Source: Nitrosococcus watsonii C-113 (lineage in GTDB: Bacteria; Pseudomonadota; Gammaproteobacteria; Nitrosococcales; Nitrosococcaceae). From it: a DNA stretch of 64,000 nucleotides. Every line of letters begins with the position of its first letter. Positions within the stretch are counted from its first letter, which is position 1. Below, piece after piece: positions 8,519 to 24,270 of this stretch. The notes below the pieces were generated by a model. It was not told the origin of the DNA, did not search any database, and was given only the letters and a program-made list of their open reading frames with translations. The stretch lies in assembly GCF_000143085.1 (NCBI RefSeq), contig NC_014315.1:732307-796306 (forward strand). Direction: 5' to 3'. A program made the position numbers and the translations under genes.

Positions 8519-8940
8519 AATTCCATTCTCTCGTTCAAAAATAACTAGCGCTATCGGCTAATAATCAAAAGGCGAAACCGTAACGGGAGTTTATGATGTT
8601 AATATGAAGTTAAACTTAATGAGATTCGCTCGAAATGCAAACTTGTGGGCGTTGAACAATCAGTAGATTAGCGGCATGCTGGTAGTGTTGTTAACACCTA
8701 TTATTCAATTGGATCAATCGCGTCCTAACAAATCCTGCTAGACGGCACTACGAGTTGACCATCATCTTTATAATGCTTGGGGGATGGTATGGAGGCACGG
8801 CTAAGGATGTGAAACGTCGATGGACTAGAAACGATTTGGATGGTTTGAACATCAGGAATATCATACTAATGTCATAATTCGAGTACCATAATTTTATATT
8901 TAGCTTGTGCTCTCTAGCTAGGATTTCTCTGGGGATGAAG
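8519..8940. other. Divergent control region between porin and phoB
   Basis: About 420 bases with no supported gene, lying between the leftward porin gene and the rightward phoB. It holds a good Pho-box-like repeat for phoB (8858-8875) and a weaker candidate facing the porin (8592-8609). Confidence 0.5.
8858..8875 (+). promoter_or_regulatory. Putative Pho box upstream of phoB
   Basis: ATATCAT, four bases, ATGTCAT: two 7-base direct repeats 11 bases apart, matching the PhoB-binding consensus in the core TCAT/GTCAT. It lies about 65-80 bp before the phoB start and implies autoregulation. Confidence 0.55.
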
Positions 8941-9630
8941 ATGGCCGCAACCATATTAATCGTTGATGATGAAGCCGCAATTCGCGAAATGCTGGGATTT
9001 GCCCTTACCCAGGAGGGGTATCATTATCAGGTGGCTGCCGATGGGGAGCAGGCATGGCAGCAGATCAACGAGTTCCGCCCGGATCTTATTTTGTTGGATT
9101 GGATGTTGCCGGGGATTAGCGGCGTGGATTTGGCCCGCCGCCTTAAGCGGGAACCCAGTACGCGAGAGCTCCCTGTGATCATGCTAACTGCCCGCGATGA
9201 AGAGGAAGATAAGGTTCGGGGCCTCAATGTGGGCGCCGATGATTATATTACCAAGCCCTTTTCACCAATGGAACTGATAGCCCGAATAAAAGCGGTGCTG
9301 CGGCGGAGTGCGCCATTGCTTAGCGGAGAGGTAATTGAAGTCAATGGGCTGAAGTTAGATCCAGACAGCCATCGCCTTAGTGTGGGAGGCGCACCCCTAG
9401 AGATGGGGCCTACGGAATTTCGCCTGCTCCACTTTTTCCTTACTCACCTAGAGCGGGTCTATAGTCGGGGGCAGCTGATTGATTACGTTTGGGGAAACAA
9501 TGTGTATGTCGAGGAACGCACAGTGGATGTCCATATCCGCCGTTTGCGCAAATCCTTAGAGCCGAGCGGTCATGATGGGCTTATCCAAACCGTGCGGGGC
9601 GTAGGGTACCGTTTTTCTACTCGTTCCTAA
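8941..9630 (+). CDS. phoB: Phosphate regulon response regulator PhoB
   Basis: DNA-binding response regulator of the phosphate-starvation response. The receiver domain shows the acidic pair DD (9-10), phospho-acceptor Asp53 in LLDWMLPG, Thr83 and Lys105 in TKPFSP. The C-terminal winged helix ends with the recognition-helix pattern [19 protein letters not shown]. 229 residues, standard for PhoB. ATG 8941 gives the canonical [11 protein letters not shown] start; ATG 8935 is two codons upstream. It is followed after four bases by phoR. Confidence 0.93.
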
Positions 9631-9634
9631 TTCC

Positions 9635-10948
9635 ATGCGCGGAGATCTTTGGCGTTTGGGAGGAGGACTGCTACTAGCCTTGTTGCTGGGGCTCATTCTG
9701 GGGCAGGTCTTTTTTTGGCTGTTTCTCTTTACCCTGGGTTATGTGCTGTGGCAGCAGCGCCAGCTTTATTATCTTTATCGTTGGCTGCAAAAACCAAAAC
9801 AGAGAAGATCCCCTGCTGAGGTAGGGATCATGGAAGAGGTTGTCCGTCAAATTGATTTTATGCGTCAGCGTCATCGCTCCCGTAAGGACAAGCTTTCCCA
9901 ATATCTCAAACGTTTTCAAAAGGCTACAGCGGCATTGCCCGATGCCACCGTGGTGCTTAATCAATATGATGAAATTGAATGGGCTAACGAGGCTAGTCGG
10001 CGGCTCCTGGGGCTAAAATCTCCATGGGATATTGGCCAGCGCATCAGTAATCTGATTCGTTACCCAGATTTTGTTGAACTAATGGCGCTTGACCGTAAGG
10101 TTTCCGGCATGGTCGAATTGCCATCGCCTATTAATCCGGCGCTGCATTTAAATATCCGCATTTTCCCCTACGGTGAGGGGCAACGTTTGTTAGTCGTACA
10201 AGATGTTACTCGGCTCCATCAGTTAGAACGGATGCGGCGTGACTTTATAGCTAGTGTGTCCCATGAGCTGCGGACGCCTTTAACGGTCCTCCGAGGTTAT
10301 TTGGAGGTGCTGGAGAAGAGAAAAAATGTCGGCTCGGAGAGCTGGAACCGCTCTTTTAAAACCATGGGAGAGCAGGTGGGGCGGATGCAGCATCTTGTCG
10401 AAGATCTCCTCATGCTCTCCCGTTTGGAGAGCCGGGATAAAAAACCAGCGGAAACCCCTGTGGCGGTTCCGAAAATGCTAGCGGAAATTTGCCAAGAAGC
10501 CCGAATACTTAGCGGTGACCGCCAGCACCACATTCACCTTGAGGCGGATGCTGGGTTATGGCTGCGAGGAAATGAGCAAGAATTGCATAGTGCTTTTTCT
10601 AACCTGGTCGTGAATGCTATTCGCTATACTCCAGCCCAAGGGAATATTACCCTCCATTGGTTCAAGCAGCAGGCAGGACGGCCTTGCTTGGAAGTGAGGG
10701 ATACCGGCGAGGGGATCGCCGCCGAACATCTTCCTCGGGTGACAGAACGTTTCTACCGGATTGATAAGGACCGTTCCCGGAAGAGGGGAGGAACTGGTTT
10801 AGGGCTTGCTATTGTCAAGCATGTTTTAAGCCATCACGAAGCCCATTTAGAGATCGAAAGTGAGTTGGGCAAAGGCAGCGTTTTTCGCTGCCTTTTTTCT
10901 AGCGGGCGGGGGCAGCCATCAAAAGTGCATCTCTCTAAAACAGGTTAG
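9635..10948 (+). CDS. phoR: Phosphate regulon sensor kinase PhoR
   Basis: Membrane-bound histidine kinase that phosphorylates PhoB when phosphate is scarce. Two closely spaced membrane helices (about residues 8-45) with almost no periplasmic loop, a basic linker, a PAS domain (about 95-200), the HisKA box SVSHELRTPL with the phosphorylated His, N box NLVVNAIRYTP, G1 DTGEGIA and G2 GGTGLGLAIVKH. 437 residues, typical. The lack of a sensor domain fits the known model in which PhoR reads the Pst transporter through PhoU, both encoded downstream. Confidence 0.93.
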   Translation: MRGDLWRLGGGLLLALLLGLILGQVFFWLFLFTLGYVLWQQRQLYYLYRWLQKPKQRRSPAEVGIMEEVVRQIDFMRQRHRSRKDKLSQYLKRFQKATAALPDATVVLNQYDEIEWANEASRRLLGLKSPWDIGQRISNLIRYPDFVELMALDRKVSGMVELPSPINPALHLNIRIFPYGEGQRLLVVQDVTRLHQLERMRRDFIASVSHELRTPLTVLRGYLEVLEKRKNVGSESWNRSFKTMGEQVGRMQHLVEDLLMLSRLESRDKKPAETPVAVPKMLAEICQEARILSGDRQHHIHLEADAGLWLRGNEQELHSAFSNLVVNAIRYTPAQGNITLHWFKQQAGRPCLEVRDTGEGIAAEHLPRVTERFYRIDKDRSRKRGGTGLGLAIVKHVLSHHEAHLEIESELGKGSVFRCLFSSGRGQPSKVHLSKTG

Positions 10949-10965
10949 CAGGTGGTATCGCCTAG

Positions 10966-10983
10966 CCGTCATACAAATGTCAT
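10966..10983 (+). promoter_or_regulatory. Putative Pho box upstream of pstS
   Basis: CCGTCAT, four bases, ATGTCAT: two direct 7-base repeats 11 bases apart, the best Pho-box match in the window. It lies about 95 bp upstream of pstS. Confidence 0.7.
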
Positions 10984-11078
10984 ATTATCGGCCCATACTG
11001 CTCGTATAATATGGTTCTCGCTGTTGCATATTAATAATATAGCCCTAGACGTATTCTAGGCTAAGGAGAATTGACTAA

Positions 11079-12077
11079 ATGCAGATTAGAACGCTGATTG
11101 GAGTTCTAGGGCCTGTTTTGGGTGTACTGCTTGCCGGCAACGGCATGGCTGCTAATTCGCTGGACCCCAACCTTACGGAATACAACAAAGCCAGCGGTGT
11201 GGCTGGTACCCTATCCAGTGTTGGCTCCGATACGTTGGCTAATCTAATGACTCTGTGGGCGGAAGAGTTTAAAAAACTTTATCCGAGTGTGAATATTCAA
11301 GTTCAGGCTGCTGGCTCTTCAACAGCTCCCCCCGCACTGACTGAAAATACTGCCAATATTGGTCCCATGAGTCGGAAAATGAAGGGTAATGAGGTAGAAG
11401 CCTTCGAAAACAAATATGGTTATAAGCCGACCCCCATCCGGGTAGCTATTGATGCCTTGGCCGTTTATGTTAACAAGGATAATCCCATCGAGAAAATCAC
11501 CCTGCCCCAGGTAGATGCGATTTTTTCCGCTACTCGCAAATGTGGTTACCCGGAAGATATCAAGGTTTGGGGAGATTTGGGTTTAGGGGGCGAGTGGCTT
11601 CATCGCCGCATCCAACTTTTTGGCCGCAATTCGGTTTCAGGCACTTATGGCTACTTTAAGAAAGCTGCCCTCTGCAAAGGTGATTTCAAGAATACGGTCA
11701 ACGAGCAGCCAGGTTCTGCCTCGGTGGTTCAGGGGGTGACCAAATCGATTAATGGGATTGGCTACTCTGGTATCGGTTATCAGACTTCTGGGGTACGTGC
11801 GCTTCCCCTTGCGACCAAGACGGGCGCGCCCTCCGTGGAGGCAACCGCGGAAAACGCAGTGAAGGGACAGTATCCCCTGACGCGCTTTCTTTACGTCTAT
11901 GTCAACAAGCATCCCAATGAACCTTTGTTGCCGCTAGAGCAGGAGTTTATCAAAATGGTACTCTCCAAAGTGGGTCAAAGAGTGGTGATTAAAGATGGTT
12001 ATATTCCGTTGACCGCCCCGATTGCGGCTAAGGATCTCGCTAAAATTGGAGTAAAGGGGTTAGGAACTGCTAATTAA
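11079..12077 (+). CDS. pstS: Phosphate ABC transporter substrate-binding protein PstS
   Basis: Periplasmic phosphate-binding protein, 332 residues with a signal peptide (about 1-24). Phosphate-binding loops are visible: VGSDTLANL near residue 48, [13 protein letters not shown], the GPMSRKMK segment and [13 protein letters not shown]. This belongs to the PstS group common in marine gammaproteobacteria. It is preceded by a strong Pho box and followed by a hairpin before pstC, so it is probably made in excess over the membrane subunits. Confidence 0.93.
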
Positions 12078-12100
12078 CGCGAGAAATCTCTATTCACTAG

Positions 12101-12130
12101 AAGCGCCTTGGGAAACGAGGCGCTTTTCTT
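12101..12130 (+). terminator. Hairpin between pstS and pstC
   Basis: AAGCGCCT (12101-12108) pairs with AGGCGCTT (12118-12125) around a 9-base loop, followed by TTCTTT. Because pstC starts only 39 bp later, it probably acts as a partial terminator or mRNA stabiliser that sets PstS above the other Pst subunits. Confidence 0.75.
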
Positions 12131-12163
12131 TCTGTATTTTTTGTTATTGTGTCTTAGACTAAA

Positions 12164-14455
12164 ATGGTTGCTAAAGCTTCAGAGACGGAAGAGCAGGTGG
12201 TTCCTTCCCCCCATTCGCCGGTGGCCATACGCCGCCGTCGCTGGCGTAACATCAAGGATCACTTAGCACGCTATTGCATTGCTGCCGGTGGTGTTAGCGT
12301 TATTATTGCCATCGTACTGATTTTCTTTTACCTCTTGTACGTGGTGATCCCCCTGTTTCGTCCTGCTCAGCTAGAGCCCGCTGCCCAGTATCCAGCCCCT
12401 GGGGACAATGGGGCGAATACGCTTCACTTAGCCTTGAATGAATATAACGATATGGGCTTACGCTTGACTGAGCAAGGGCAAGCGGTCTTCTTCTCTACTG
12501 AGGAGGGCAAGGTGGTTTTAGAAACCCCATTGCCCTTTCCCAATCCCAAGGAGGCAGCCGTGACTAGCTTTGCCGCCGGCGATCCGGCCGGCAAGGTAAT
12601 CGTCTATGGTCTATCCAATGGCCACGCCCTGCTGGCGCGCCATGCCTACCGCGTCTCCTATCCTGACAATGTACGCACTATTACGCCCCGATTAGAATAC
12701 CCCCTTGATAAAGCCCTGTTGGCGGTGGACCCTAAGGGGCAGCCCTTGCGCCTTATTAGTGCTCAATCGGATGAGGATCAGACTACCATCGCCGCAGTGA
12801 CCACAGATGGACGCTTGGTTTTAGTCAGTTTTACCGCACAGCAGTCCTTTCTCGATGATGAAATTACCGTTGAACAGACGACTGCCTCGCTAGATCTGTC
12901 TCCGCTGCAAGCGACGCATTTAGTGCTGGATGAGCAGCAAGAGGAATTATATGTGGCGGACTCGGAGGGTTATATTAATTACTATCAGCTCCGTGACAAG
13001 GAAACGCCGCACCTAGTGCAGCGGGTAAAGGCGGTTTCAGAAGAAGTTCGGATAACCGCCTTGTCTTTTCTTGCGGGCGGTATTTCTCTCCTGGTAGGGG
13101 ATTCTTCCGGCCAGATTGCCCAATGGTTCCCGGTGCGCAATGAAGGCAATCATTATACTTTGGAACAAATCCGCACCTTCAATACTCAACAGGCACCCAT
13201 TATGGCCATTGCCTCCGAGCATGCCCGGAAAGGTTTCTTGGCGGTGGATTCTTCTGGTCAGGTGGGTGTTTATCATACTACGGCTCACCAAACGCTGCGG
13301 GTTGCAAACATCAGCAAGGCCCCGCTGGTAACAGTAGCTATTGCGCCCCGGGCCGATGGGATGCTAGCCAGCGACTCTCAGGGCAAGATTTATTTCTTGA
13401 AGATAGAGAATCCGCATCCTGAGGTCTCTTGGCAAGCGCTATGGGGGAAAGTCTGGTATGAAAGCCGGGATAAGCCTGAGTTTCTCTGGCAATCCTCATC
13501 TGCGAGCGATGATTTCGAGCCAAAATTTAGCCTGACACCACTCACGTTTGGTACCTTCAAGGCTGCTTTTTATGCCATGTTATTCGCTGTTCCACTGGCC
13601 ATTTTAGGGGCGCTTTATACCGCTTATTTTATGAGCGCCAAGATGCGCGGGCTGGTCAAGCCCACCATCGAAATCATGGAGGCCCTTCCCACGGTTATTC
13701 TCGGTTTTTTAGCGGGTCTTTGGCTGGCGCCTTTGGTCGAGGATAATCTCCCAGGGGTCTTTGCTTTCTTGTTGCTATTGCCCGTGGGAGTCTTTATGGC
13801 TGCTTATTTATGGCGCTGCTTGCCTAGCTGGGTGCGCCAATGGGTTCCCGAGGGTTGGGAAGCCGCCTTGCTTCTTCCCGTGGTAGTGGGGCTAGGGATT
13901 CTTGCCGCGGCGCTAAGCCAGCCGCTGGAAGTGGCTTTGTTTAATGGCAATATGCCCCAGTGGCTCAGCACCCACCTGGGGATTGCTTATGATCAGCGTA
14001 ATTCCCTCGTGGTCGGGTTTGCCATGGGATTTGCCGTCATACCGACGATTTTTTCCATCTCCGAAGATGCTATTTTCAGTGTCCCCAAGCAGCTCACTTT
14101 TGGTTCCTTGGCGCTGGGTGCTACTCCTTGGCAGACTCTGGTGAGGGTGGTGCTTTTGACCGCAAGTCCCGGTATTTTCTCTGCGGTAATGATTGGTCTT
14201 GGCAGGGCAGTAGGCGAGACCATGATCGTCTTAATGGCGACGGGCAATACTCCTATTATGGATTTTAATCCTTTCCAAGGCTTCCGCGCCTTGTCCGCGA
14301 ATATTGCGGTGGAGATGCCTGAGTCCGAGGTTGATAGTACCCACTACCGTATTTTGTTTCTTGCCGCGTTAGTATTATTTATGGTGACTTTCGTTTTTAA
14401 TACGCTCGCTGAGATCGTGCGCCAGCGGCTACGAAAAAAATACAGCAGCTTGTAG
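12164..14455 (+). CDS. pstC: Phosphate ABC transporter permease PstC with large periplasmic insert
   Basis: Permease subunit of the phosphate importer. At 763 residues it is more than twice E. coli PstC. A cytoplasmic tail and first helix (about 45-67) are followed by about 380 residues that look like a beta-propeller (repeating short strands such as VLVSFTAQ, LYVADSEGYINYYQL, ISLLVGDSSGQIAQW, GFLAVDSSGQVGVYH), then the permease core from about residue 465 with the EAA-type loop SLALGATPWQTLVRVVLL near 655. The long form is known in some gammaproteobacteria; the role of the propeller is not established. Tandem with pstA and pstB. Confidence 0.9.
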   Translation: MVAKASETEEQVVPSPHSPVAIRRRRWRNIKDHLARYCIAAGGVSVIIAIVLIFFYLLYVVIPLFRPAQLEPAAQYPAPGDNGANTLHLALNEYNDMGLRLTEQGQAVFFSTEEGKVVLETPLPFPNPKEAAVTSFAAGDPAGKVIVYGLSNGHALLARHAYRVSYPDNVRTITPRLEYPLDKALLAVDPKGQPLRLISAQSDEDQTTIAAVTTDGRLVLVSFTAQQSFLDDEITVEQTTASLDLSPLQATHLVLDEQQEELYVADSEGYINYYQLRDKETPHLVQRVKAVSEEVRITALSFLAGGISLLVGDSSGQIAQWFPVRNEGNHYTLEQIRTFNTQQAPIMAIASEHARKGFLAVDSSGQVGVYHTTAHQTLRVANISKAPLVTVAIAPRADGMLASDSQGKIYFLKIENPHPEVSWQALWGKVWYESRDKPEFLWQSSSASDDFEPKFSLTPLTFGTFKAAFYAMLFAVPLAILGALYTAYFMSAKMRGLVKPTIEIMEALPTVILGFLAGLWLAPLVEDNLPGVFAFLLLLPVGVFMAAYLWRCLPSWVRQWVPEGWEAALLLPVVVGLGILAAALSQPLEVALFNGNMPQWLSTHLGIAYDQRNSLVVGFAMGFAVIPTIFSISEDAIFSVPKQLTFGSLALGATPWQTLVRVVLLTASPGIFSAVMIGLGRAVGETMIVLMATGNTPIMDFNPFQGFRALSANIAVEMPESEVDSTHYRILFLAALVLFMVTFVFNTLAEIVRQRLRKKYSSL

Positions 14456-14479
14456 TCGTTAAAGGGGAGAAAGGTTTAA

Positions 14480-16132
14480 ATGAAAGCGTGGTTTAAGTCA
14501 GGTGCGCCGTGGGTGTGGTTGACCGCGGGTACAGTCAGTATCAGTCTCATGATGGTCGTGGGTTTGTTGATATTGATTGCGGTCAAAGGATTGGCGCATT
14601 TTTGGCCAGCCCAAGTAGCGGAAATTCATTATACCCAGCAGGATGGGGAGAGAGTGCGTTTGATGGGTGAAGTCGTCAGCCAAGAGCGGGTTCCCCGTCA
14701 GCGTTTACTGGATAGAGGTTATACGCTGCCAGAGGGAGCTCCGCTGGTTACCCGCAGCTTGTTCAAAGTCGGTAACCGGGATTTTTTGGGTGCTGATTTT
14801 TTATGGATCGTGGCGCCATTGATTCACGATACCCATTATCCGCGAGCATTAATGGTCATTGAACGCCGAGAATGGGGCGATTTTTATGGTTACCTGAAAT
14901 CTGTCAAGGAGCAAGATAGGGTTGTTGCCGTAGGTAAAAATGCTTGGGAAGCATTGCAGCAACGGATGGCTAGAGCTAATGAACTGTACGCCCGAATTAA
15001 GACGATTGAAGAAGGTGATATTGGGGCCATCAATTATAAATTAGAACAGCTACGTTTGCGCCGCCGAGCGTTGGAACTGGAAGAAGAGCCTGCCCCGCAA
15101 GCTTATGCCCAAATCAAAGCGAGGGAAGCAGAGCTTCAAGGAACCTATGCCACGATTCAGAAAGAACTCAATGGACTTTACCAGCAAATCAGGCGAGATA
15201 GTTTAACGGCTGAGATTGCGGATGGCCAGGTAGTGGAAATCCCGTTAGAGAAGGTGGTACGGGCCTACCGCCCTAATGGGATGGGGATAGGAGAAAAGAT
15301 CCGTTTTTACGTCACAAAGCTCATTGAATTTGTGACGGAGGATCCCCGTGAGGCCAACACGGAAGGAGGAATCTTTCCCGCCATTTTTGGGACGGTGATG
15401 ATGGTCCTTATCATGTCGGTCATCGTCACTCCTTTTGGGGTAGTGGCCGCGGTTTATTTACGGGAATATGCGCAACAAGGATTGTTGATACGTATTATCC
15501 GGATCGCGGTCAATAATCTAGCCGGTGTGCCTTCTATCGTTTATGGCGTATTTGGCCTGGGATTTTTTGTTTATTTCTTGGGAGGTAATGTGGATCGTTG
15601 GTTTTTCCCGGAAGCATTACCGGCGCCGACCTTCGGTACTCCAGGTTTACTTTGGGCCTCCCTGACCTTGGCTATTCTGACGATGCCCGTGGTTATCGTG
15701 GCAACGGAGGAGGGATTATCGCGTATTCCACGCTCCATTCGGGAGGGGAGCCTAGCATTGGGGGCCACCCGGGCAGAAACCTTATGGCGTACCGTATTGC
15801 CCATGGCCGTTCCCGCCATGATGACGGGGCTTATTTTGGCGGTGGCGCGGGCCGCCGGTGAAGTAGCGCCCCTGATGATGGTGGGGGTAGTCAAGCTGGC
15901 TCCTTCCTTGCCTCTGGATGGGAATTTTCCATTCTTGCATCTGGATCGTAAATTCATGCACTTAGGCTTTCATATCTATGATGTGGGCTTCCAAAGTCCG
16001 AATGTGGAAGCTGCCCGCCCTTTAGTATATGCAACGGCTTTGTTGCTGATTCTGATTATCGTGGCCCTCAACCTCGCCGCGATTATGATTCGTAACCGAC
16101 TCCGGGAAAAATACCGTGCCGCAGAGACTTAA
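14480..16132 (+). CDS. pstA: Phosphate ABC transporter permease PstA with coiled-coil insert
   Basis: Second permease subunit, 550 residues against about 300 in E. coli. After one N-terminal helix (about 14-38) comes a periplasmic insert with a probable coiled coil (about 155-245, rich in Glu/Arg/Leu: [17 protein letters not shown]). The permease core starts at about 290 and contains the EAA-type loop [18 protein letters not shown] near 430. It pairs with the enlarged PstC, so both subunits carry extra periplasmic domains that may contact each other or PstS. Confidence 0.9.
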
Positions 16133-16148
16133 AAAAAAGACGAAAACC

Positions 16149-17000
16149 ATGAACCAGGAGACTCATGATAAAACACCGCGAACCCATGGGATGGATATTT
16201 CTTTAATCGAGCGCGGCGTTAAAAAACTTAAGCTAAAAGATGAAACTTGCTGTTTGCAGGTCAAACAATTCAATTTCTATTACAACCAGCATACTCAGGC
16301 GCTTAAAAGCATTAATCTCATTATTCCGGAACGCCGGGTGACTGCATTTATCGGTCCGAGCGGATGCGGCAAATCCACCCTGCTGCGTTGCTTTAACCGC
16401 ATGAACGATCTGATTGATGGAGCCCGTATCGAAGGAGAAATGTTGCTTAACAAGCAAGATATTTATGGCAAAAATGTTAATGTGCCTGATCTGCGACGCC
16501 GGGTTGGCATGGTGTTTCAAAAACCTAATCCTTTCCCCAAGTCCATTTACGAGAATGTCGCTTACGGGCTGCGTTTACAGGGAGTCAAGAACCGCCGTAC
16601 CCTGGATAAGGTCGTGGAAAAATCCCTTAGAAGTGCCGCTTTATGGGATGAGGTTAAAGATCGTCTGGACGATAATGCGGTGGGTCTTTCCGGCGGCCAG
16701 CAGCAGCGGTTGGTCATTGCCAGGGCCATTGCCATTGAACCGGAGGTCTTGCTACTGGATGAGCCTGCTTCAGCCCTGGACCCTATCTCCACCCTTAAAA
16801 TCGAAGAATTGATCTATGATTTGAAGGATAAATATACGATTGTGATTGTTACCCATAATATGCAGCAAGCAGCGCGGGTTTCTGACTATACAGCGTTTAT
16901 GTATTTAGGCGAATTGATTGAGTTTGGCGACACCGGTACATTATTTACTAATCCGAAAAAGAAACAGACCGAGGATTACATTACCGGTCGCTATGGCTGA
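16149..17000 (+). CDS. pstB: Phosphate ABC transporter ATP-binding protein PstB
   Basis: ATPase of the phosphate importer. Walker [10 protein letters not shown], signature LSGGQQQR, Walker [14 protein letters not shown] and the switch His in VTHNM are all present. ATG 16149 was chosen; an earlier ATG at 16116 would overlap the end of pstA. About 283 residues with a roughly 30-residue N-terminal extension before the ABC fold, longer than E. coli PstB. Confidence 0.93.
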
Positions 17001-17036
17001 TGGTTTTTGGTAATTTTAAGACACAAGGAGTGGATA

Positions 17037-17750
17037 ATGGCCCATAGCACGACCCCCCATACTTACCGGCAGTATGATAAGGAATTAGAGGATATTCGGA
17101 CTCGCGTTCTGGCCATGGGCGGACTGGTGGAACGGCAGATCGCCGAGGCCGTGGATGCCTTGGTGAGTGGAGACGTGGAAAAGGCCGAAGCGGTGATCAG
17201 CCAGGATTACCGGGTCAATGCCATGGATGTTTCCATTGACGAGGAATGCACCCAGATTTTAGCCCGCCGCCAACCGACGGCGGGTGATTTGCGGTTGGTA
17301 ATGGCGGTGATTAAAACCATTGCCGATCTGGAACGGATTGGGGATGGGGCTGAACGCATAGGCCGCACGACGGTTCGCCTATCGGAACGGGAGAAGCCGG
17401 CGAATATTTTTGATTCCATAAGTTCCCTCTCTAGTCACGCCTTAGGAATACTCCGGGATTCCCTGGATGCCTTTGCCCGTATGGATGCTGAGGCGGCTCT
17501 TGCCGTAGCGGCGAGAGATACTCAGGTGGACGCCCGGTACGAGAGTATTTTGCGTCAACTGATTACCTACATGATGGAGGACCCCCGCAATATTTCCTGG
17601 GCGGTAGAACTGATTTGGGTAGCCCGGGCCCTGGAACGAATTGGCGATCATGCTTGTAATATCTGCGAGTACGTTATTTATTTAGTCAAAGGCAAGGATG
17701 TGCGCCATACCAGCTTGGAAGGGATGGAGCAGATCGTTCGCGAAAAATAA
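17037..17750 (+). CDS. phoU: Phosphate transport regulator PhoU
   Basis: Cytoplasmic negative regulator linking PstB to PhoR. Two PhoU repeats of three-helix bundles are visible, each with the metal-binding E/DxxxD-type pattern (TIADLERIGDGAERI in the first, WVARALERIGDHACNI in the second). 237 residues. ATG 17037 is preceded by AAGGAG at the right distance; the longer in-frame version starting at 17007 lacks a ribosome site. It closes the pst operon. Confidence 0.93.
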   Translation: MAHSTTPHTYRQYDKELEDIRTRVLAMGGLVERQIAEAVDALVSGDVEKAEAVISQDYRVNAMDVSIDEECTQILARRQPTAGDLRLVMAVIKTIADLERIGDGAERIGRTTVRLSEREKPANIFDSISSLSSHALGILRDSLDAFARMDAEAALAVAARDTQVDARYESILRQLITYMMEDPRNISWAVELIWVARALERIGDHACNICEYVIYLVKGKDVRHTSLEGMEQIVREK

Positions 17751-17851
17751 TTTTTTCCTCCTCCTCTCGCCTAGACGCCGCTTAAGGGGTTGGTGGCTCA
17801 TCTGGAGTTACCGGACAATAGCGTGATTACGGTAAAAACGGAGTTTAATGA

Positions 17852-19357
17852 ATGTTAAGCCAGCGGCACCCTGATACCTTGGCTGCCATCGATCTGGGCT
17901 CCAATAGCTTTCATATGATCATTGCCCGCGTAGTCAGGGAAGGCCAGCTACAGGTTTTGGACCGTTTGCGGGAGATGGTTCAATTGGCCGCTGGCCTGGA
18001 TGAGGCAGGATGCCTGAGTGAAACAGCCCAGGAGCGCGCCCTGAATTGCCTGGCGCGATTTGGTCAGCGGTTGCGGCACCTTCCTCCCTGGGCTATTCGG
18101 GCCGTGGGCACCAATACCCTGCGGCAGGCAAAAAATGCAGATGAATTCTTAAAGCGGGCCTCCGCTGCCTTGGATCATCCCATTGAAGTGATTGCCGGAG
18201 ATGAGGAGGCCCGCTTGATTTATTTAGGCGTTTCCCATGCCCTGGATTTTGATAATGTCCGGCGGTTAGTGGTGGATATTGGGGGGGGAAGCACGGAATT
18301 CATTATTGGTGAGGGCGCTGAGGAAGGTCGTTACCGGCAAAGCATTGAAATGGGTTGCGTTCGCTATAGCCGCCGCTTTTTCCCTCAGGGGGAGCTGAAT
18401 AAAGCCGCGATGAGGCAAGCCGAAATTGCCGCCCGTACAATGTTGCAAGACTTTGAGCAGTCTTTTCGCCATCTGGGATGGGAGGAGGCTATCGGGGCTT
18501 CAGGGACAATCCGGACGGTGGCCCGGGTGGTCGCTGCCCAGGGTTGGTGTGGGAGTGGCACGATCACGGCCGCCTCCCTGAAAGCCCTGGCTGATCTTAT
18601 GGTGGATGCGGGACAGGTCAAACGCCTTAAGCTTGAAGGGCTCAGTGCTGAGCGGGGACCCGTATTTCCGGGAGGTGTAGCAGTGCTCAAAGGGGCTTTT
18701 GAAAGCTTGGGAATTAAACGCATGACGGTTTCGGATGGTGCCTTGCGGGAGGGACTGCTCTACGATCTCATTGGCCGGATTCGCCATGAAGATGTGCGTG
18801 ACCGTACGGTCGCTGATTTAGCCCAGCGCTATCATGTGGATGAGTCCCATGCTTCTCGTGTTAAAGATACCGCCTTGGTATTGCTGGAAACGGTGGCTTC
18901 CACATGGAAGTTCGAGGAAGAGCATTTTTTGCTTTTAAAGTGGGCAGCAATATTGCATGAGGTGGGCCTTGCCCTCTCCCATAGTCAGTACCATAAGCAT
19001 GGCGCCTATCTGCTAGCCTATAGTGATCTGCCCGGCTTTTCCCAACAAGAGCAGCAAGTCCTGGCATTTTTGGTACGGGGGCATCGCCGCAAGCTGTCGG
19101 CTGCCAAATTGGATTTGCTGCCCGAAGATCTCCGCCAGCCTACGCTGCGTCTTTGCCTGCTGTTGCGGCTGGCGGTTGTACTTAACCGTAATCGTTCACC
19201 GGCGGCGCTGCCTTGCCTGCTATTCAAGGTAGATAAAAATATTTTAAAGCTCAAGTTCCCTGACGGATGGTTGCTCCAGCATCCGTTGACCGAAGCTGAT
19301 CTAGCGCAAGAGACCGCCTATATTAAGGTTGCCGGTTACCGCCTAAAGGCCAAATAA
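17852..19357 (+). CDS. ppx: Exopolyphosphatase / pppGpp phosphohydrolase (Ppx/GppA family)
   Basis: Releases phosphate from inorganic polyphosphate (or acts on pppGpp). ASKHA-fold motifs: AIDLGSNSFHM at the N-terminus, the catalytic Glu in IAGDEEARLIY and VDIGGGSTEF; the C-terminal half is the HD-like helical domain (ILHEVGLALSHSQYHKHGAYLL). 501 residues, full length. It lies about 100 bp after phoU and abuts the CYTH gene, so phosphate import and polyphosphate turnover are grouped. Confidence 0.9.
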   Translation: MLSQRHPDTLAAIDLGSNSFHMIIARVVREGQLQVLDRLREMVQLAAGLDEAGCLSETAQERALNCLARFGQRLRHLPPWAIRAVGTNTLRQAKNADEFLKRASAALDHPIEVIAGDEEARLIYLGVSHALDFDNVRRLVVDIGGGSTEFIIGEGAEEGRYRQSIEMGCVRYSRRFFPQGELNKAAMRQAEIAARTMLQDFEQSFRHLGWEEAIGASGTIRTVARVVAAQGWCGSGTITAASLKALADLMVDAGQVKRLKLEGLSAERGPVFPGGVAVLKGAFESLGIKRMTVSDGALREGLLYDLIGRIRHEDVRDRTVADLAQRYHVDESHASRVKDTALVLLETVASTWKFEEEHFLLLKWAAILHEVGLALSHSQYHKHGAYLLAYSDLPGFSQQEQQVLAFLVRGHRRKLSAAKLDLLPEDLRQPTLRLCLLLRLAVVLNRNRSPAALPCLLFKVDKNILKLKFPDGWLLQHPLTEADLAQETAYIKVAGYRLKAK

Positions 19358-20320
19358 GTGCCAACAGAAAGCGAAATCAAGTTGCGGTTGTCTCTAGGGC
19401 AACTTTCCAAATTCAGCGCCCACCTCTGGGTGAAAGAGCATGGGAAACAGGGTCCAACGCGTAAGCATTTACACAGCACCTATTTTGATACGCCTGATTT
19501 GCGCCTTCTGGACCAAGGGGTAGGACTTCGGGTGCGGCGAATGGACCATCGCTGGGTTCAGACACTCAAGGGAGATAATTCTGGGAAGGCAGGCCTCCAG
19601 CGGCGCCAGGAATGGGAAGGTGAAGTAGAACATAATGCCCCCGATCTGGAGCGGCTAGCGGCAGAAGCCAAAATCGGAGTGCTTAAGGAGTCAGATCTCG
19701 CGTCCCGTTTAATCCCGGTGTTTGAAACAGATTTTTCTCGCACCATCTGGCTTTTGTGGCTAGGGGATGCGGTGGCTGAATTGGCCTTGGACGAAGGGCA
19801 TATTCGTGCTCATGGCCGCACTGAGCCCTTATCTGAGTTGGAACTGGAGCTGAAACAGGGGGCCGAAAAAGATCTCTATTCAGCCGCTTTACATCTAACC
19901 GAGATTTTTCCCCTTGCCGTGGAACATGCCAGCAAGGCTGAGCGGGGTTACCGGCTTTACACTCAGCAATTTTCTCCTCTCTCTGCGCCAGGGTTTGTAC
20001 CTGTTGAGGCTGTTTCCGATGTCCAGTCGTTAAGCTATTGGTTGGCCCACTTGCAATACGGTGAGCGGTTACTGCTCGAGCGATGCGATTCCCAAGGGAG
20101 CAGTCACCTGCGGGCAGCAGCTGAAGGTTTGCGTGGGGTGATAATAGCGGCGGGACAGAAAGTAGAAATCTCCCTGCAAGAGGATTTGGATTGGCTGACC
20201 AAGGGGCTGCAGGCAAGCAAAGACTTTTCTGAAATCAGTACCCTGGTGGCTGCTCCCCACTATAGCCGATTATTATTGCGCTTGGGGAAGTATTTAGCGG
20301 AGTTGGAAGAAAAGCAGTAA
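19358..20320 (+). CDS. CYTH-domain protein, probable inorganic triphosphatase
   Basis: CYTH-fold enzyme likely to hydrolyse inorganic triphosphate. The family ExExK signature is at the N-terminus (ESEIKLRL), followed by YFDTPDLRLLDQGVGLRVR, the Lys/Arg strands, and ELELELKQG near residue 160. Residues from about 215 onward are helical and look like a short, incomplete CHAD-type tail. Start is GTG directly after the ppx stop, giving an obvious ppx-CYTH unit for polyphosphate metabolism. Substrate is inferred. Confidence 0.8.
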   Translation: MPTESEIKLRLSLGQLSKFSAHLWVKEHGKQGPTRKHLHSTYFDTPDLRLLDQGVGLRVRRMDHRWVQTLKGDNSGKAGLQRRQEWEGEVEHNAPDLERLAAEAKIGVLKESDLASRLIPVFETDFSRTIWLLWLGDAVAELALDEGHIRAHGRTEPLSELELELKQGAEKDLYSAALHLTEIFPLAVEHASKAERGYRLYTQQFSPLSAPGFVPVEAVSDVQSLSYWLAHLQYGERLLLERCDSQGSSHLRAAAEGLRGVIIAAGQKVEISLQEDLDWLTKGLQASKDFSEISTLVAAPHYSRLLLRLGKYLAELEEKQ

Positions 20321-20368: not shown

Positions 20369-20917
20369 ATGATGAATTACGGAATTTCGATAGCGTTGAT
20401 AGTTGGTTTCGCTTTTGCCGGCGGCGCCATGGCGGCAGGTGGCTCCCAGCAAAAGTTGGCGATTCAAAGCGCTGGGCAAATACACCCGGTGCCACAAGCC
20501 GCTTATCAGCCGGACCGGAAGGCCACCTACAAGGTAGTGTTCGATCTGACCCAGGCCGCCGCCAAGCCCAACCAGTTAAGTCCCGCCCTAGAGCGCGTGG
20601 CGCGCACGGTGAATTTGTACGCCAGCGCTGGCGTGCCGCTGGAGCACTTAAAATTTGTTGCGGTTGCCCACGGTCCTGCCACTTCCATCGCTTTGGACGA
20701 GGTCCACTACCGGGAGCAATATGGTACCGCCAATCCCAATTTGCTGGTGATTGAGGAGCTGCGTAAGGCGGGGGTGGATATTGCCGTATGCGGCCAAGCG
20801 GTGGTGGAACATCATTACGCTTATGAATGGGTTGATCCCCGCGTTACCTTGGCCTTGTCTGCTTTGACGACCATTATGGATTTACAGCAACAGGGCTACG
20901 CTCTCATGCCTCTCTAG
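20369..20917 (+). CDS. Exported DsrE-family protein
   Basis: 182 residues with a signal peptide (about 1-23) and a DsrE/DsrF-like alpha/beta domain: KVVFDLTQAA, ERVARTVNLYASAGVPLEHLKFVAVAHG, and IAVCGQAVVEH with a single conserved-type cysteine. Cytoplasmic DsrE proteins carry sulfur on such a Cys; this one appears periplasmic. Strong AAGGAGG ribosome site. First gene of a five-gene run ending in a thiosulfate dehydrogenase, consistent with handling sulfur species, but its activity is not shown. Confidence 0.8.
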   Translation: MMNYGISIALIVGFAFAGGAMAAGGSQQKLAIQSAGQIHPVPQAAYQPDRKATYKVVFDLTQAAAKPNQLSPALERVARTVNLYASAGVPLEHLKFVAVAHGPATSIALDEVHYREQYGTANPNLLVIEELRKAGVDIAVCGQAVVEHHYAYEWVDPRVTLALSALTTIMDLQQQGYALMPL

Positions 20918-20943
20918 TGTATTCATGAAAAGGAGAATGCACC

Positions 20944-21909
20944 ATGCCCCCTTTTATTTTGCCACGGCTGTTGCTGGTAATCCTCCTTGTGGTGAGTTCT
21001 GCCAGCACTTCCCTTCTGGCGGCGGAGAAGGCCGACGACTATCTGCCGCCTTGGAATCCGCCGCCGCCAGGAGGAGTATCCTTCGCTGTGCCGCCCGTGA
21101 ATGCGATTGCCGATTTGCATGGGGATATTATTGATCCACAGCTGGTGGTGTTCTTTGCCGGTAACCAATTCATGGTGGTTCATGATTTGATGGTGGCCTT
21201 CAAGCAGGCTCATCCCCAGTACCAGCGGGTGTTCGTGGAAACGCTACCGCCAGGCATTGAAGCCAAGCAGATCGAAACCGGTTCCCTGGTGATGGGTAAC
21301 TTGCGCATCACGCTGAAACCCGATGTCTATACGGCTGGCAAGGGCGCCATTGCTGAGCTTCAGCAACAGCATGGCTGGTTCGCGGAAACCTATGATTACG
21401 CCCGCAATCCGCTTGCGATCATGGTGGCCAAGGGCAACCCTAAGCATATTAAAAGCCTAGCCGATCTGGGCCGTCCCGACGTGCGGGTCGCCATGCCCAA
21501 CCCTAAATGGGAGGGTATCGGAAAGCAGATCATCGCCAGCTATCGTAAGGCTGGCGGCGAGGCGCTTGAGCGTGCCATCATGGAAACCAAGGTAGCGGAC
21601 GGTAGCACCTATCTGACTTATATGCATCACCGCCAATCACCGTTGCGCGTGCTCCAGGGCCAATCCGATGCGGCGCCGGTGTGGTCGACCGAGCCGTATT
21701 TCCAACAGCAGATCCTGCGACACCCCGTGGAAACGGTACCGATACCACCGGAACAGAATACCATCGCCACCTATACCGCCGCCCGCCTCAAGGATGCTCC
21801 CCACGAGCAGGCTGCGTGGGATTTTTTCGCTTTTATGAAGAGCCCCGCAGCCCAGGCCGTCTATAAGAAATACGGCTTCCAGCCACCGCGCTCCGGGGAG
21901 TCGCCATGA
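20944..21909 (+). CDS. Periplasmic solute-binding protein, ModA/anion-binding type
   Basis: 321 residues with a cleavable signal peptide (about 1-26), then a Pro-rich stretch and a type II periplasmic-binding fold: VVFFAGNQFMVVHDLMVAF, ARNPLAIMVAKGNPKHIKSLADLGRPDVRVAMPNPKWEGIG, and AAWDFFAFMKSPAAQAVYKKYGF at the end (each described by fragments of the segment). This resembles molybdate/sulfate-type binding proteins. No ABC permease or ATPase lies nearby, so it may bind an anion for an enzyme rather than for import. Its stop overlaps the start of the next gene (ATGA). Confidence 0.75.
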   Translation: MPPFILPRLLLVILLVVSSASTSLLAAEKADDYLPPWNPPPPGGVSFAVPPVNAIADLHGDIIDPQLVVFFAGNQFMVVHDLMVAFKQAHPQYQRVFVETLPPGIEAKQIETGSLVMGNLRITLKPDVYTAGKGAIAELQQQHGWFAETYDYARNPLAIMVAKGNPKHIKSLADLGRPDVRVAMPNPKWEGIGKQIIASYRKAGGEALERAIMETKVADGSTYLTYMHHRQSPLRVLQGQSDAAPVWSTEPYFQQQILRHPVETVPIPPEQNTIATYTAARLKDAPHEQAAWDFFAFMKSPAAQAVYKKYGFQPPRSGESP

Positions 21910-22685
21910 AGTTTTTATCGTTGATCGTGATGTGGGCACTGGCTTTCAGCGCCCATGGAGTTGACTTATACGTATATGGTCCTGGCGGCCCGGCTCCGGC
22001 GATGAAGGCCGCAGCGGCTGCTTTTGAAAAGGCTTCCGGAACGAAAGTGGTGGTTACGGCTGGTCCCACCCCAACTTGGATTGAGGCCGCGCGGGGCAAT
22101 GCCGATCTGCTCTATAGCGGCTCGGAGCACATGATGTCGGACTTTCTCGTTATGCTGGGATCGATGCTGGCAGCAGATACGGTGCGGCCGATGTATTTAC
22201 GGCCAGCGGCGATCCTGGTGCGGCCGGGCAATCCCGCCGGCATCGGCGGTTTGGTGGATCTTCTCAAACCTGGCCACCGCATACTGGTGGTCCATGGCGC
22301 GGGCCAAGTTGGCTTGTGGGAAGATATTGTGGGCCGCGACGGCGACATCACCACTTTACGGGCGCTGCGCAGCAATATCGTGCACTACGCCACAAACACA
22401 GGCGCAGCTAAGGAGCGCTGGCTGACGGACCCAAAAATCGATGCCTGGATTGTTTATAATATTTGGGCTATCGCCAATCCTGGCATTGCCGACGTGGTTC
22501 CCTTGGAGCCCCACTATCGCATCTACCGTGATTGTGGAATAGTGCTTACCGAGCGCTCCCGCGCCAAACCGGAGGCACAAGCCTTTACTCGCTTTCTCGA
22601 AAGCGACCAGGGCCGCGCGATCTTTGAGCGGTTTGGCTGGGTGAGGCGCGATGCCGAGGCTGCTGCAGCCAAGGAGGGGTTCTGA
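21906..22685 (+). CDS. acfC: AcfC-like periplasmic binding protein
   Basis: 259 residues, signal peptide about 1-19, then a type II binding-protein fold with the features I associate with AcfC (accessory colonization factor, related to sulfate-binding proteins): VYGPGGPAPAMK, AGPTPTWIE, YSGSEHMMSDF, LYLRPAAILVRPGNP-like text and GAGQVGLWED. Known AcfC proteins have no settled substrate. Overlaps both neighbours (ATGA upstream, TGATG downstream). Placement between a second binding protein and thiosulfate-oxidising cytochromes suggests a sulfur oxyanion, which is inference. Confidence 0.8.
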   Translation: MKFLSLIVMWALAFSAHGVDLYVYGPGGPAPAMKAAAAAFEKASGTKVVVTAGPTPTWIEAARGNADLLYSGSEHMMSDFLVMLGSMLAADTVRPMYLRPAAILVRPGNPAGIGGLVDLLKPGHRILVVHGAGQVGLWEDIVGRDGDITTLRALRSNIVHYATNTGAAKERWLTDPKIDAWIVYNIWAIANPGIADVVPLEPHYRIYRDCGIVLTERSRAKPEAQAFTRFLESDQGRAIFERFGWVRRDAEAAAAKEGF

Positions 22686-23368
22686 TGCCTGCCATATTGA
22701 TATCTTTACGCTGGCTTACGGTTTTGCCGCTTTTGCTCGGGTTACCGTGGGCTGCTGTCCAGGCGCTTGATGCCGCTACTATCGCCGCCCAGGGCAATGG
22801 CCGGGGCGCCGCGCCTTGCGTTACTTGTCATGGCGTTGATGGCGTGGGCCAGGCTGCTATGAGTTCTCCGCGGTTGGCTGGTCTTAATGCCGCCTATCTT
22901 TTGAAGCAGCTCGATGATTTTGCCAGTGGCGCGCGCGACAATCCCATCATGACCCCCCTGGCAACGGCTCTTGGTACCGATGAGCGGCAAGCCCTGGCGG
23001 AATATTACAGCCAACTGCCCCTGCCAGAAGCGTTGAGAGCTTCCAACAACATTACCCAAGCGTCTATTGATAGCGTTGGCGCGATTCTGGCTACACGGGG
23101 GCGCTGGTCGGATAGCATTCCTGCCTGCGAGCAGTGTCATGGTCCACGGGGTATCGGCGTGGGCGCGCATTTTCCGCCCCTGGCGGGGCAGCCGTCCAGC
23201 TACCTTGCCTCCCAACTCCGTGCCTGGAAGGAGGGGCAGCGGCGTAATGATCCCTTGGGGCTAATGGGGCATATTGCCGAGAAGCTTAGTGACTCCGATA
23301 TTGATGCCGTGGCTAACTGGTTCGCCTTCGTTACCCGACCTATTGGCGACAAGGAGGAAACGCCATGA
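22685..23368 (+). CDS. tsdB: Diheme cytochrome c (c4/TsdB type)
   Basis: 227 residues with signal peptide (about 1-28) and two class I cytochrome c domains, with heme sites CVTCH (about 45-49) and CEQCH (about 148-152), each followed by a PxLAG-type loop and later Met candidates. The two-domain plan is that of cytochrome c4 and of TsdB, the electron acceptor of thiosulfate dehydrogenase. Its stop overlaps the ATG of the tsdA-like gene, so partner production is coupled. Confidence 0.85.
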   Translation: MPAILISLRWLTVLPLLLGLPWAAVQALDAATIAAQGNGRGAAPCVTCHGVDGVGQAAMSSPRLAGLNAAYLLKQLDDFASGARDNPIMTPLATALGTDERQALAEYYSQLPLPEALRASNNITQASIDSVGAILATRGRWSDSIPACEQCHGPRGIGVGAHFPPLAGQPSSYLASQLRAWKEGQRRNDPLGLMGHIAEKLSDSDIDAVANWFAFVTRPIGDKEETP

Positions 23369-24270
23369 TCCCACTACCTCGTTCGTTCCGTGTTCTATTT
23401 ACTCCCGTATTCACGCTGTTGGTGCTTGCCAGTGGCCTTTCCCTGGGGCAGGAAAATGCCGCGGGGACGGAACCCAGCTTTGCGCCGCCGTCTGAAACGG
23501 CGATTCCCGACAATGAATTTGGCGCCATGGTGCGGCGAGGCCGGGATATTTTCCTCCATACCCGCCAAAAGGCCAGGGCCTATGTGGGTAATGGTCTTAG
23601 CTGCGTCAATTGCCATCTGGACGCCGGTCGGCTTGAGGATTCAGCGCCCCTTTGGGGAGCCTATGGCCGGTATCCCCAGTTCCGCTCCAAAAACGATCAC
23701 GTCAACAATTTCACCGAGCGGCTGCAAGGCTGCTTTATGTACAGCATGAACGGCAAAGCGCCACCCGCCGGCAGCGAGGTGCTGATAGCTCTGGAAACCT
23801 ACGCTTACTGGCTGGCCAGCGGCGCGCCCATTGGTGTTACCTTGCAGGGTGCTGGTTTCCCGAAGCATTTCAAGCCGCCGCAGCCTCCTGATTATGCCCG
23901 CGGCCAGCAAGTTTTCAACGCCCAATGCGCCCTCTGTCACGGTAGTGATGGACAAGGCCAGAAAGCGGCCGGCGAATACGTTTTTCCACCCCTGTGGGGT
24001 AACGATTCCTATAACTGGGGAGCCGGCATGCACCAGCTTGATAATGCCGCCGGTTTTATTAAGGCGAATATGCCCCTGGGATTAGGGAATAGTCTGAGCG
24101 ATCAGGAAGCGTGGGATGTGGCCCTATTTATCAACGCCCACGAGCGGCCGCAAGATCCCCGCTATACGGGCGATTTGGCGGAAACCCGCAAGCTGTACCA
24201 TGATACGCCAAACTCTTTGTATGGCCTTGAGATAAAGGGTCGGTTGCTGGGGTTCGCGCCAGGGAAATAG
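23365..24270 (+). CDS. tsdA: Thiosulfate dehydrogenase TsdA (diheme cytochrome c)
   Basis: Periplasmic enzyme joining two thiosulfates to tetrathionate (reversible in some species). 301 residues; signal peptide, heme 1 CVNCH (80-84), heme 2 CALCH (188-192). The TsdA hallmark is present: Cys123 in RLQGCFMYSMNG, which in characterised TsdA is the unusual cysteine ligand of the active-site heme. Further family text: KNDHVNNF, ALETYAYWLASGAP, NWGAGMHQ, KANMPLGLG with the likely Met ligand of heme 2, and HERPQDPR. Last gene of the 20.4-24.3 kb operon. Confidence 0.9.
   Translation: MIPLPRSFRVLFTPVFTLLVLASGLSLGQENAAGTEPSFAPPSETAIPDNEFGAMVRRGRDIFLHTRQKARAYVGNGLSCVNCHLDAGRLEDSAPLWGAYGRYPQFRSKNDHVNNFTERLQGCFMYSMNGKAPPAGSEVLIALETYAYWLASGAPIGVTLQGAGFPKHFKPPQPPDYARGQQVFNAQCALCHGSDGQGQKAAGEYVFPPLWGNDSYNWGAGMHQLDNAAGFIKANMPLGLGNSLSDQEAWDVALFINAHERPQDPRYTGDLAETRKLYHDTPNSLYGLEIKGRLLGFAPGK

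What the first reader, a model, noticed from the sequence alone, without database searches (positions are those of the whole stretch)
20369..24270. Coupled operon of DsrE-like, two anion-binding proteins and thiosulfate dehydrogenase TsdBA
Five genes; the last four joined by 1- or 4-base overlaps, all products exported. TsdA keeps the hallmark cysteine heme ligand (Cys123). The two solute-binding proteins (one ModA-like, one AcfC-like) have no transporter partner here. Inference: they may capture or deliver a sulfur oxyanion such as thiosulfate or tetrathionate to the cytochromes, with the DsrE-like Cys protein as sulfur carrier. I know of no described system with this composition, and it links sulfur oxidation to an ammonia oxidiser.
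Basis: partly seen in the sequence, partly recalled or inferred. Interest (0 to 1): 0.75.

Follow-up and report, generated by a model that had tools for sequence, protein, structure and literature searches.

The report
Thiosulfate enzyme operon with binding proteins
Five exported proteins sit in one operon: a thiosulfate-oxidising enzyme pair, an anion-binding protein and a sulfur-carrier-like protein that recur together in distant bacteria, plus a second binding protein that joins them more rarely, so the set looks like a real but little-described sulfur-handling module.

Summary
In detail: DsrE–SBP1–AcfC–TsdB–TsdA at 20369–24270, last four genes overlapping by 4, 1 and 4 bases. The would-be refuter ('no conserved linkage') fails. 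A scan with SBP1 alone kept its 80 best loci (mostly Pseudomonadota and Bacteroidota, two Desulfarculaceae MAGs); TsdA lies within 5 kb on the same strand in 78, a DsrE-type gene in 78, in three gene orders. Among 79 Hymenobacter-related genomes SBP1 occurs in 11, each with TsdA under 1 kb away. Of 29 other TsdA loci read up to 5 kb each way, 2 have a DsrE-type gene and none a close SBP1. More distant SBP1 relatives sit beside DoxDA, an unrelated thiosulfate-to-tetrathionate enzyme; this order (tsd–sbp–doxDA) is described in Acidithiobacillus ferrooxidans. AcfC is optional (18 of 80). SBP1 folds like sulfate/molybdate binders; DsrE keeps one invariant Cys. Best reading: a periplasmic thiosulfate/tetrathionate module in which SBP1 binds the sulfur oxyanion and DsrE carries it on cysteine; ligand, direction and transfer are untested. 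The nearest genome lost tsdBA by deletion but keeps the other three genes.

The parts
20369..20917 (+). Exported DsrE/DsrF-like protein, one cysteine (Cys141)
   Evidence: PF02635 3.4e-11; Cys141 in 41 of 41 aligned rows, window included; AF2 pLDDT 89.6, nearest folds DsrE/DsrF-like proteins, DsrEFH, YchN
20944..21909 (+). SBP1, type II solute-binding protein of the sulfate/molybdate-binder group, conserved partner of TsdA
   Evidence: PF13531 1.3e-44; AF2 pLDDT 90.5, nearest solved folds ModA, WtpA, SubI, Sbp, AcfC, PEB3, VIA Z 19.5-22.7; TsdA within 5 kb in 78 of 80 loci
21906..22685 (+). AcfC/PEB3-like solute-binding protein; overlaps SBP1 by 4 bases
   Evidence: PDB 4jb7 1.2e-51, PEB3 entries about 6e-48; within 5 kb of SBP1 in 18 of 80 loci, all Bacteroidota, directly downstream in 15
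22685..23368 (+). TsdB, di-heme cytochrome c, likely electron partner of TsdA; overlaps AcfC by 1 base
   Evidence: two cytochrome c stretches; with SBP1 and TsdA in 34 of 80 loci
23365..24270 (+). TsdA, di-heme cytochrome c thiosulfate dehydrogenase/tetrathionate reductase; overlaps TsdB by 4 bases
   Evidence: PF21342 1.1e-9; 5lo9 2.5e-81, 4wq7 2.1e-54; two CxxCH, Cys123, Arg119, Ser127, Met236

Best explanation
A periplasmic thiosulfate/tetrathionate module. TsdA converts thiosulfate to tetrathionate (or back) at its Cys-ligated heme and exchanges electrons through TsdB with the respiratory chain (inferred from the family). SBP1 is an oxyanion-binding protein dedicated to this chemistry: it binds thiosulfate, tetrathionate or a related sulfur oxyanion in the periplasm and supplies it to, or takes it from, the enzyme, without an ABC transporter. 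The exported DsrE-like protein reacts through its single conserved cysteine with the sulfur oxyanion (for example as Cys-S-thiosulfonate from tetrathionate) and carries it on. AcfC is a second, optional binding protein, found in the window's operon, in its nearest relative and in some Bacteroidota operons. Shown: gene set, linkage, predicted folds, conserved catalytic residues. Inferred: ligand, direction, transfer.
For: Scan with SBP1 only: TsdA near it in 78 of 80 loci, DsrE-type gene in 78 of 80, same strand. Three orders: DsrE-SBP1-TsdB-TsdA, TsdA-DsrE-SBP1(-AcfC), DsrE-TsdA-SBP1. Hymenobacter relatives: SBP1 in 11 of 79 genomes, TsdA in 25 of 79, all 11 SBP1 under 1 kb from a TsdA; Fisher on co-occurrence 5e-7, but the genomes are related and the centre, G359, was picked from the SBP1 scan. 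Control: of 29 other TsdA loci read up to 5 kb each way, none has a close SBP1, one a weak SBP hit (L193), two a DsrE-type gene (L218, L219). SBP1 relatives of another clade sit beside DoxDA: L044, L046, L047 (L047 is the same place as L185) and L187-L190. DoxD/DoxA domains in L044 and L047. In A. ferrooxidans the SBP gene AFE_0043 and doxDA AFE_0044 are higher on sulfur than on iron (PMC2754497 passages). The fold group includes binders of tetrahedral oxyanions. DsrE Cys in 41 of 41; Bacteroidota version 42 of 42, the two aligned by hhalign prob 94. Precedent: DsrE3A takes thiosulfonate from tetrathionate (PMC4175335 abstract). V. cholerae AcfC bound sulfated polymers more than hyaluronic acid (PMC5976639 passages).
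Against: No ligand is known for any member; the fold group also holds iron and citrate binders at Z 19-20. AcfC relatives bind other things: PDB titles give D-aspartic acid for AcfC and L-phospholactate for PEB3. The nearest genome, G002, has lost tsdBA and keeps DsrE, SBP1, AcfC, so these may serve without TsdA, or the loss is young. In family members G004 and G005 TsdA stands without SBP1. L101 and L126 have SBP1 without TsdA; L043 and L045 have neither enzyme. G243 has the Tat-type TSD without SBP1 or DoxDA in 18 kb. The 80 loci come from few genera, so they are far fewer independent cases. 24 more distant SBP1-like loci show no TsdA, TsdB, DoxDA or TSD in about 1.5 kb each side; a DsrE-type hit is near in 2 of them, L021 and L024, and in one wider stretch, L060.
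Confidence: 0.5

Rival explanations
1. SBP1 and AcfC are sensors or uptake proteins: they bind a sulfur oxyanion and report to a regulator or feed a transporter coded elsewhere, while TsdBA works alone.
For: LysR-type genes flank SBP1 loci L044, L046 and L119 (read by eye, not counted over all loci); V. cholerae AcfC was linked to chemotaxis (PMC5976639 passages). DsrE-SBP1-AcfC persist in G002 without TsdBA.
Against: pst-type PstS, PstC and PstA have no match in the 80 loci; PstB finds an ABC ATPase in 9, eight of them a gene starting about 1.7-1.8 kb after the SBP1 match start in Sphingobacterium, one 7 kb away. Other transporter types were not searched for systematically.
Confidence: 0.22
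2. The binding proteins have a ligand unrelated to sulfur (molybdate, phosphate, an organic acid) and the cluster reflects common regulation or hitch-hiking.
For: pho/pst-type genes lie directly upstream in the window (read by eye); PEB3 is solved with L-phospholactate (PDB title).
Against: PstS, PstC, PstA, PhoU, Ppx and CYTH have no match in the 80 named loci; linkage to two unrelated thiosulfate enzymes and several gene orders is hard to get by hitch-hiking. The best curated family scores of SBP1 are thiosulfate, molybdate and sulfate binders, all below cut-off.
Confidence: 0.15
3. The module runs in reverse in the cell, reducing tetrathionate as an electron sink or to detoxify it, with SBP1 capturing tetrathionate.
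For: TsdA enzymes are bidirectional and the residue before the heme-2 Met is Asn (Asn235), as in the C. jejuni reductase (PMC5146829 passages).
Against: The same Asn stands in M. purpuratum TsdBA (alignment to 5lo9; organism by recall), an enzyme with oxidative bias (PMC5146829 passage); SBP1 relatives pair with DoxDA; Hymenobacter L138 has a COX1 gene after AcfC.
Confidence: 0.13

Closest known systems
Acidithiobacillus ferrooxidans tsd–sbp–doxDA cluster (AFE_0042-0044 and AFE_0048-0050)
   Same: A Tat-type protein (AFE_0042, identified as a thiosulfate dehydrogenase), a periplasmic sulfate/molybdate-type SBP and doxDA in one cluster (PMC6335251 section 11; PMC2621215 passage).
   Different: Enzymes are DoxDA and the TSD, not TsdBA; the first gene is a Tat-type protein, related to DsrE only tentatively (hhalign prob 67). 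AFE sequences themselves were not compared; the match is by gene order.
TsdBA thiosulfate dehydrogenases (Marichromatium purpuratum TsdBA, Allochromatium vinosum TsdA)
   Same: Two CxxCH, Cys heme ligand, Arg119, Ser127, heme-2 Met.
   Different: None of 29 other class TsdA loci has a close SBP1 within about 5 kb and only 2 a DsrE-type gene; Arg109 of A. vinosum is Lys here.
AcfC / PEB3 / Paa proteins
   Same: Fold and sequence family of AcfC and PEB3; Paa as named in PMC5976639.
   Different: Known ones are studied in gut pathogens as colonisation proteins (PMC5976639 passages), not with thiosulfate enzymes.
DsrE3A/TusA thiosulfonate transfer of Metallosphaera cuprina
   Same: DsrE-family protein that takes thiosulfonate on Cys (abstract).
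   Different: Cytoplasmic by recall; here the protein has an export-like N-terminus and no TusA gene was noticed in the operon.
CysP/Sbp and ModA binding proteins
   Same: Fold.
   Different: Scores far below curated cut-offs; no transporter gene in the operon.

Membership tests
TsdA | Two c-type heme sites (CxxCH) | tested here: met
   C80/C83/H84 and C188/C191/H192; conserved at 99-100% of 80 rows
TsdA | Cys ligand of active-site heme, with Arg119 and Ser127 | tested here: met
   C123, R119, S127 in 79 of 80 rows, the other a gap (L087); residues named in PMC4423706 passages
TsdA | Arg109 (needed in A. vinosum) | tested here: inconclusive
   Lys109 in window; Arg 44, Lys 35, gap 1 of 80; Lys also in 5lo9
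TsdA | Thiosulfate/tetrathionate activity | not testable with these tools
   needs enzyme assay
TsdB | Di-heme cytochrome gene directly before tsdA | tested here: met
   22685-23368, two cytochrome c stretches
ModA molybdate-binding protein (TIGR01256) | Score above curated cut-off 62.5 | tested here: not met
   SBP1 32.9, AcfC-like 25.7 bits
CysP / sulfate-binding protein (NF008106, TIGR00971) | Score above curated cut-off 308 / 155.5 | tested here: not met
   SBP1 32.5 / 28.1 bits
AcfC/PEB3 family | Full-length sequence similarity | tested here: met
   4jb7 residues 23-255, 1.2e-51
AcfC/PEB3 family | Ligand of known members | not testable with these tools
   needs binding assay
DsrE/DsrF-like family | Pfam domain above cut-off | tested here: met
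   PF02635 43.8 bits, cut-off 22.7
DsrE/DsrF-like family | Conserved Cys in the position of sulfur-carrying members | tested here: inconclusive
   Cys141 in 41 of 41 rows; its match to the active Cys of characterised DsrE was not aligned here
A. ferrooxidans-type tsd–sbp–doxDA cluster | SBP beside DoxDA | tested here: not met
   window has TsdBA instead; no DoxDA in the operon

The most novel reading that the evidence does not exclude
Exported DsrE plus SBP1 form a portable substrate-handling pair that plugs into unrelated thiosulfate-to-tetrathionate enzymes (TsdA or DoxDA): SBP1 presents the oxyanion, DsrE takes it as a cysteine thiosulfonate, and the TSD of Acidithiobacillus is a distant member of the same DsrE-like family. 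This would be a transporter-free, enzyme-dedicated use of binding proteins in sulfur metabolism.
Probability: 0.3. Interest if true: 0.78.

Novelty: new variant of a known kind. Interest (0 to 1): 0.6.

Why it matters
Thiosulfate dehydrogenases are treated mostly as enzyme plus electron partner (recalled view). A binding protein and an exported DsrE that travel with one branch of them across phyla, and with the unrelated DoxDA elsewhere, point to a missing substrate-handling step that can be tested with purified proteins. It would also give a likely role to many 'substrate-binding' and 'DsrE family' proteins in Bacteroidota and Rhodanobacteraceae, and a sulfur side-activity to a Nitrosococcus-type genome (genus by recall).

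Tried and rejected
Rejected: 'no conserved linkage'. Rejected: AcfC–TsdA as the core pair; AcfC is optional and the one close class homologue, G316, has no other operon gene on its 11-kb contig. Rejected: SBP1 as ordinary ModA or CysP. Rejected: the pst transporter as general partner. Considered: TSD (Tat protein of L047) as a DsrE relative; profile comparison prob 67 with DsrE and 6.5 with the Bacteroidota version, so open. Led nowhere: promoter/terminator scan, counts not above shuffles; searches on Nitrosococcus and thiosulfate or tetrathionate listed nothing on this operon (the one passage followed, PMC4109375, names a Nitrosococcus watsonii sulfur dioxygenase homologue). The first gene caller chose antisense ORFs in GC-rich loci and was replaced, which still missed some genes; counts rest on tblastn. 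My TsdB profile also hits TsdA, so it was not used for counts. The first control (3.1-3.9 kb loci, 0 of 29) was too narrow for a DsrE gene at the window's distance from tsdA, so it was repeated with up to 5 kb each side: DsrE-type 2 of 29, close SBP1 0 of 29, one weak SBP/AcfC-profile hit (3.5e-7, L193); four of these stretches are cut short by contig ends or starts.

Not-in-print claim: searches (open-licence PMC only). Searches showed only 20 of 63, 20 of 93 and 10 of 97 papers; listings were read, not the papers, apart from the passages cited. None listed joins TsdA with an SBP or exported DsrE as a module.

L106 starts at its contig end, so its missing DsrE is uninformative. TsdA in 38 of 321 class genomes at E<1e-30 is my count from the listing; only the own genome among them has SBP1 above 200 bits. 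The Hymenobacter genomes probably overlap the 14 Hymenobacter loci. dN/dS spans the whole time since the split and cannot show selection after the deletion.
Full report
What is there. Window 20369-24270 holds five genes on the + strand: DsrE-like (182 aa), SBP1 (321 aa), AcfC-like (259 aa), TsdB (227 aa) and TsdA (301 aa). The last four are joined by overlaps of 4, 1 and 4 bases. Pfam and PDB searches support the labels. All five start with a hydrophobic stretch typical of export by a simple rule. TsdA has two CxxCH, Cys123, Arg119, Ser127 and Met236 with Asn235 before it.

Is it conserved? tblastn of the operon's proteins found TsdA within 5 kb on the same strand in 78 of 80, a DsrE-type gene in 78 of 80, TsdB in 34 of 80, AcfC in 18 of 80 (directly after SBP1 in 15), DoxDA in none. 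The orders are DsrE-SBP1-TsdB-TsdA (33 loci: Rhodanobacteraceae, Pseudomonadota without a family name, and two MAGs of other label), TsdA-DsrE-SBP1 (24) and TsdA-DsrE-SBP1-AcfC (18) in Bacteroidota, and DsrE-TsdA-SBP1 in two Desulfarculaceae MAGs. The other three: L101 (DsrE and SBP1 only), L126 (SBP1 only), L106 (SBP1-TsdB-TsdA, contig starts inside SBP1). The set is rich in a few genera, so independent cases are far fewer than 80; the change of order is the stronger sign.

A second sample: 79 Hymenobacter-related genomes, gathered around G359, a genome picked from the SBP1 scan. SBP1 is in 11, TsdA at E<=1e-20 in 25, and in all 11 SBP1 genomes (10 of 10 without the centre) a TsdA lies under 1 kb from SBP1 by the listed coordinates. 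The unlinked TsdA copies are another type (41-49% against 76-100% identity to the query). In 321 class genomes, TsdA at E<1e-30 is in 38 by my count of the listing, close SBP1 (over 200 bits) in 6, both only in the own genome. Of the 29 best other TsdA loci, read up to 5 kb each side, none has a close SBP1, one (L193) a weak SBP/AcfC-profile hit and two (L218, L219) a DsrE-type gene. So the module belongs to one branch of TsdA, and DsrE-type genes sometimes accompany TsdA without SBP1.

The DoxDA parallel. Of the five close SBP1 homologues in other class families (40-50% identity), three have DoxDA directly downstream (L044, L046, L047), two of these with DsrE upstream; L045 has a DsrE-type gene, L043 nothing. 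DoxD and DoxA domains were confirmed in L044 and L047. In L047 the gene before SBP1 is a Tat-signal-like protein (P0001). It is in 2 of 321 class genomes and 5 of 117 relatives of G044; those 5 carry it with SBP1 and DoxDA, while G243 has it with neither in 18 kb. This is the order tsd–sbp–doxDA described in A. [quoted passage not shown] PMC2621215 passage) and the SBP and doxDA genes are higher on sulfur than on iron (PMC2754497 passages). In the tree the three DoxDA-linked SBPs form one clade (100/98), and the 24 distant SBPs lie far outside; these have no TsdA, TsdB, DoxDA or TSD in about 1.5 kb each side, and a DsrE-type hit in 2 of 24.

Proteins. The SBP1 model (pLDDT 90.5) is nearest to ModA, WtpA, sulfate-binding SubI and Sbp, AcfC and PEB3 (Z 19.5-22.7; neighbours under 1 apart are ties); iron and citrate binders follow at 19-20. 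Residues kept in both the TsdA clade and the distant SBPs include G73 N74, T100, P102-G104, N155, P185-P187, E190, H228 H229 R230, W247, E250; whether they line the cleft was not examined. DsrE (pLDDT 89.6) resembles DsrE/DsrF-like proteins. Its single Cys141 is in 41 of 41 rows; the shorter Bacteroidota version has one in 42 of 42 and the two align with hhalign probability 94. DsrE3A of Metallosphaera takes thiosulfonate from tetrathionate (PMC4175335, abstract), which is TsdA's product; A. vinosum TsdA works through a Cys-S-thiosulfonate (PMC4423706 passages).

Relatives. G002, the nearest genome, keeps DsrE, SBP1 and AcfC (157/181, 295/320 and 236/259 identical residues; dN/dS 0.112, 0.079, 0.225) but lacks the stretch equal to about window 22758-24249: the start of tsdB runs into the end of tsdA, and its only TsdA match is a 41-residue cytochrome stretch. 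Two other genomes of the genus have no SBP1 and only weak cytochrome-domain matches to TsdA. G005 of the same family has DsrE (48%) and TsdA (63%) with one gene between and no SBP1; G004 has TsdA alone.

Verdict. The operon is real, and the link of DsrE, SBP1 and TsdA is a conserved module in Pseudomonadota and Bacteroidota, with two further loci in Thermodesulfobacteriota MAGs. That the binding proteins serve a sulfur oxyanion is the best-supported reading but rests on association, fold and precedent. It is a new variant of a known kind: a thiosulfate-to-tetrathionate enzyme with dedicated binding and DsrE-type proteins, for which the Acidithiobacillus DoxDA cluster is the only described parallel my searches showed.

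Noticed in passing
L055 (G002) about 8268-8297, matching the ends at window 22757 and 24250: tsdBA is lost by a deletion of about 1.49 kb in the nearest genome; the start of tsdB and the end of tsdA remain while the three upstream genes stay open.
   Followed up: partly
L085 and L103: SBP1 loci labelled Eremiobacteraeota and Myxococcales MAGs nest inside the Rhodanobacteraceae clade; likely binning errors.
   Followed up: no
L125 and L127: In Desulfarculaceae MAGs the TsdA ORF carries four CxxCH; in L125 its N-terminal part reads like a di-heme peroxidase and bd-oxidase-like genes lie upstream (by eye).
   Followed up: no
L074 5761-9148: MFS-like gene, DsrE, a purine-phosphorylase-like gene and TsdA are closely packed in G005 (names by eye).
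   Followed up: no
L138 4174-11595: Hymenobacter operon is preceded by a LysR-like fragment and a PF03601 membrane protein (YeiH-type by recall) and followed by COX1.
   Followed up: partly
window 8905-20320: phoB/phoR-, pst-, phoU-, ppx- and CYTH-type genes run in the same direction directly upstream; only 48 bases separate the CYTH gene from dsrE (some names by eye).
   Followed up: partly
L009-L032: A separate group of SBP1-like proteins with the same GNQF, PPG and HHR motifs, without thiosulfate enzymes in the near flanks, occurs in many Gammaproteobacteria; function unknown.
   Followed up: partly
L218 7409-7834 and L219 7560-8021: DsrE-type genes about 1.7-1.9 kb after TsdA in two genomes without a close SBP1.
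   Followed up: no
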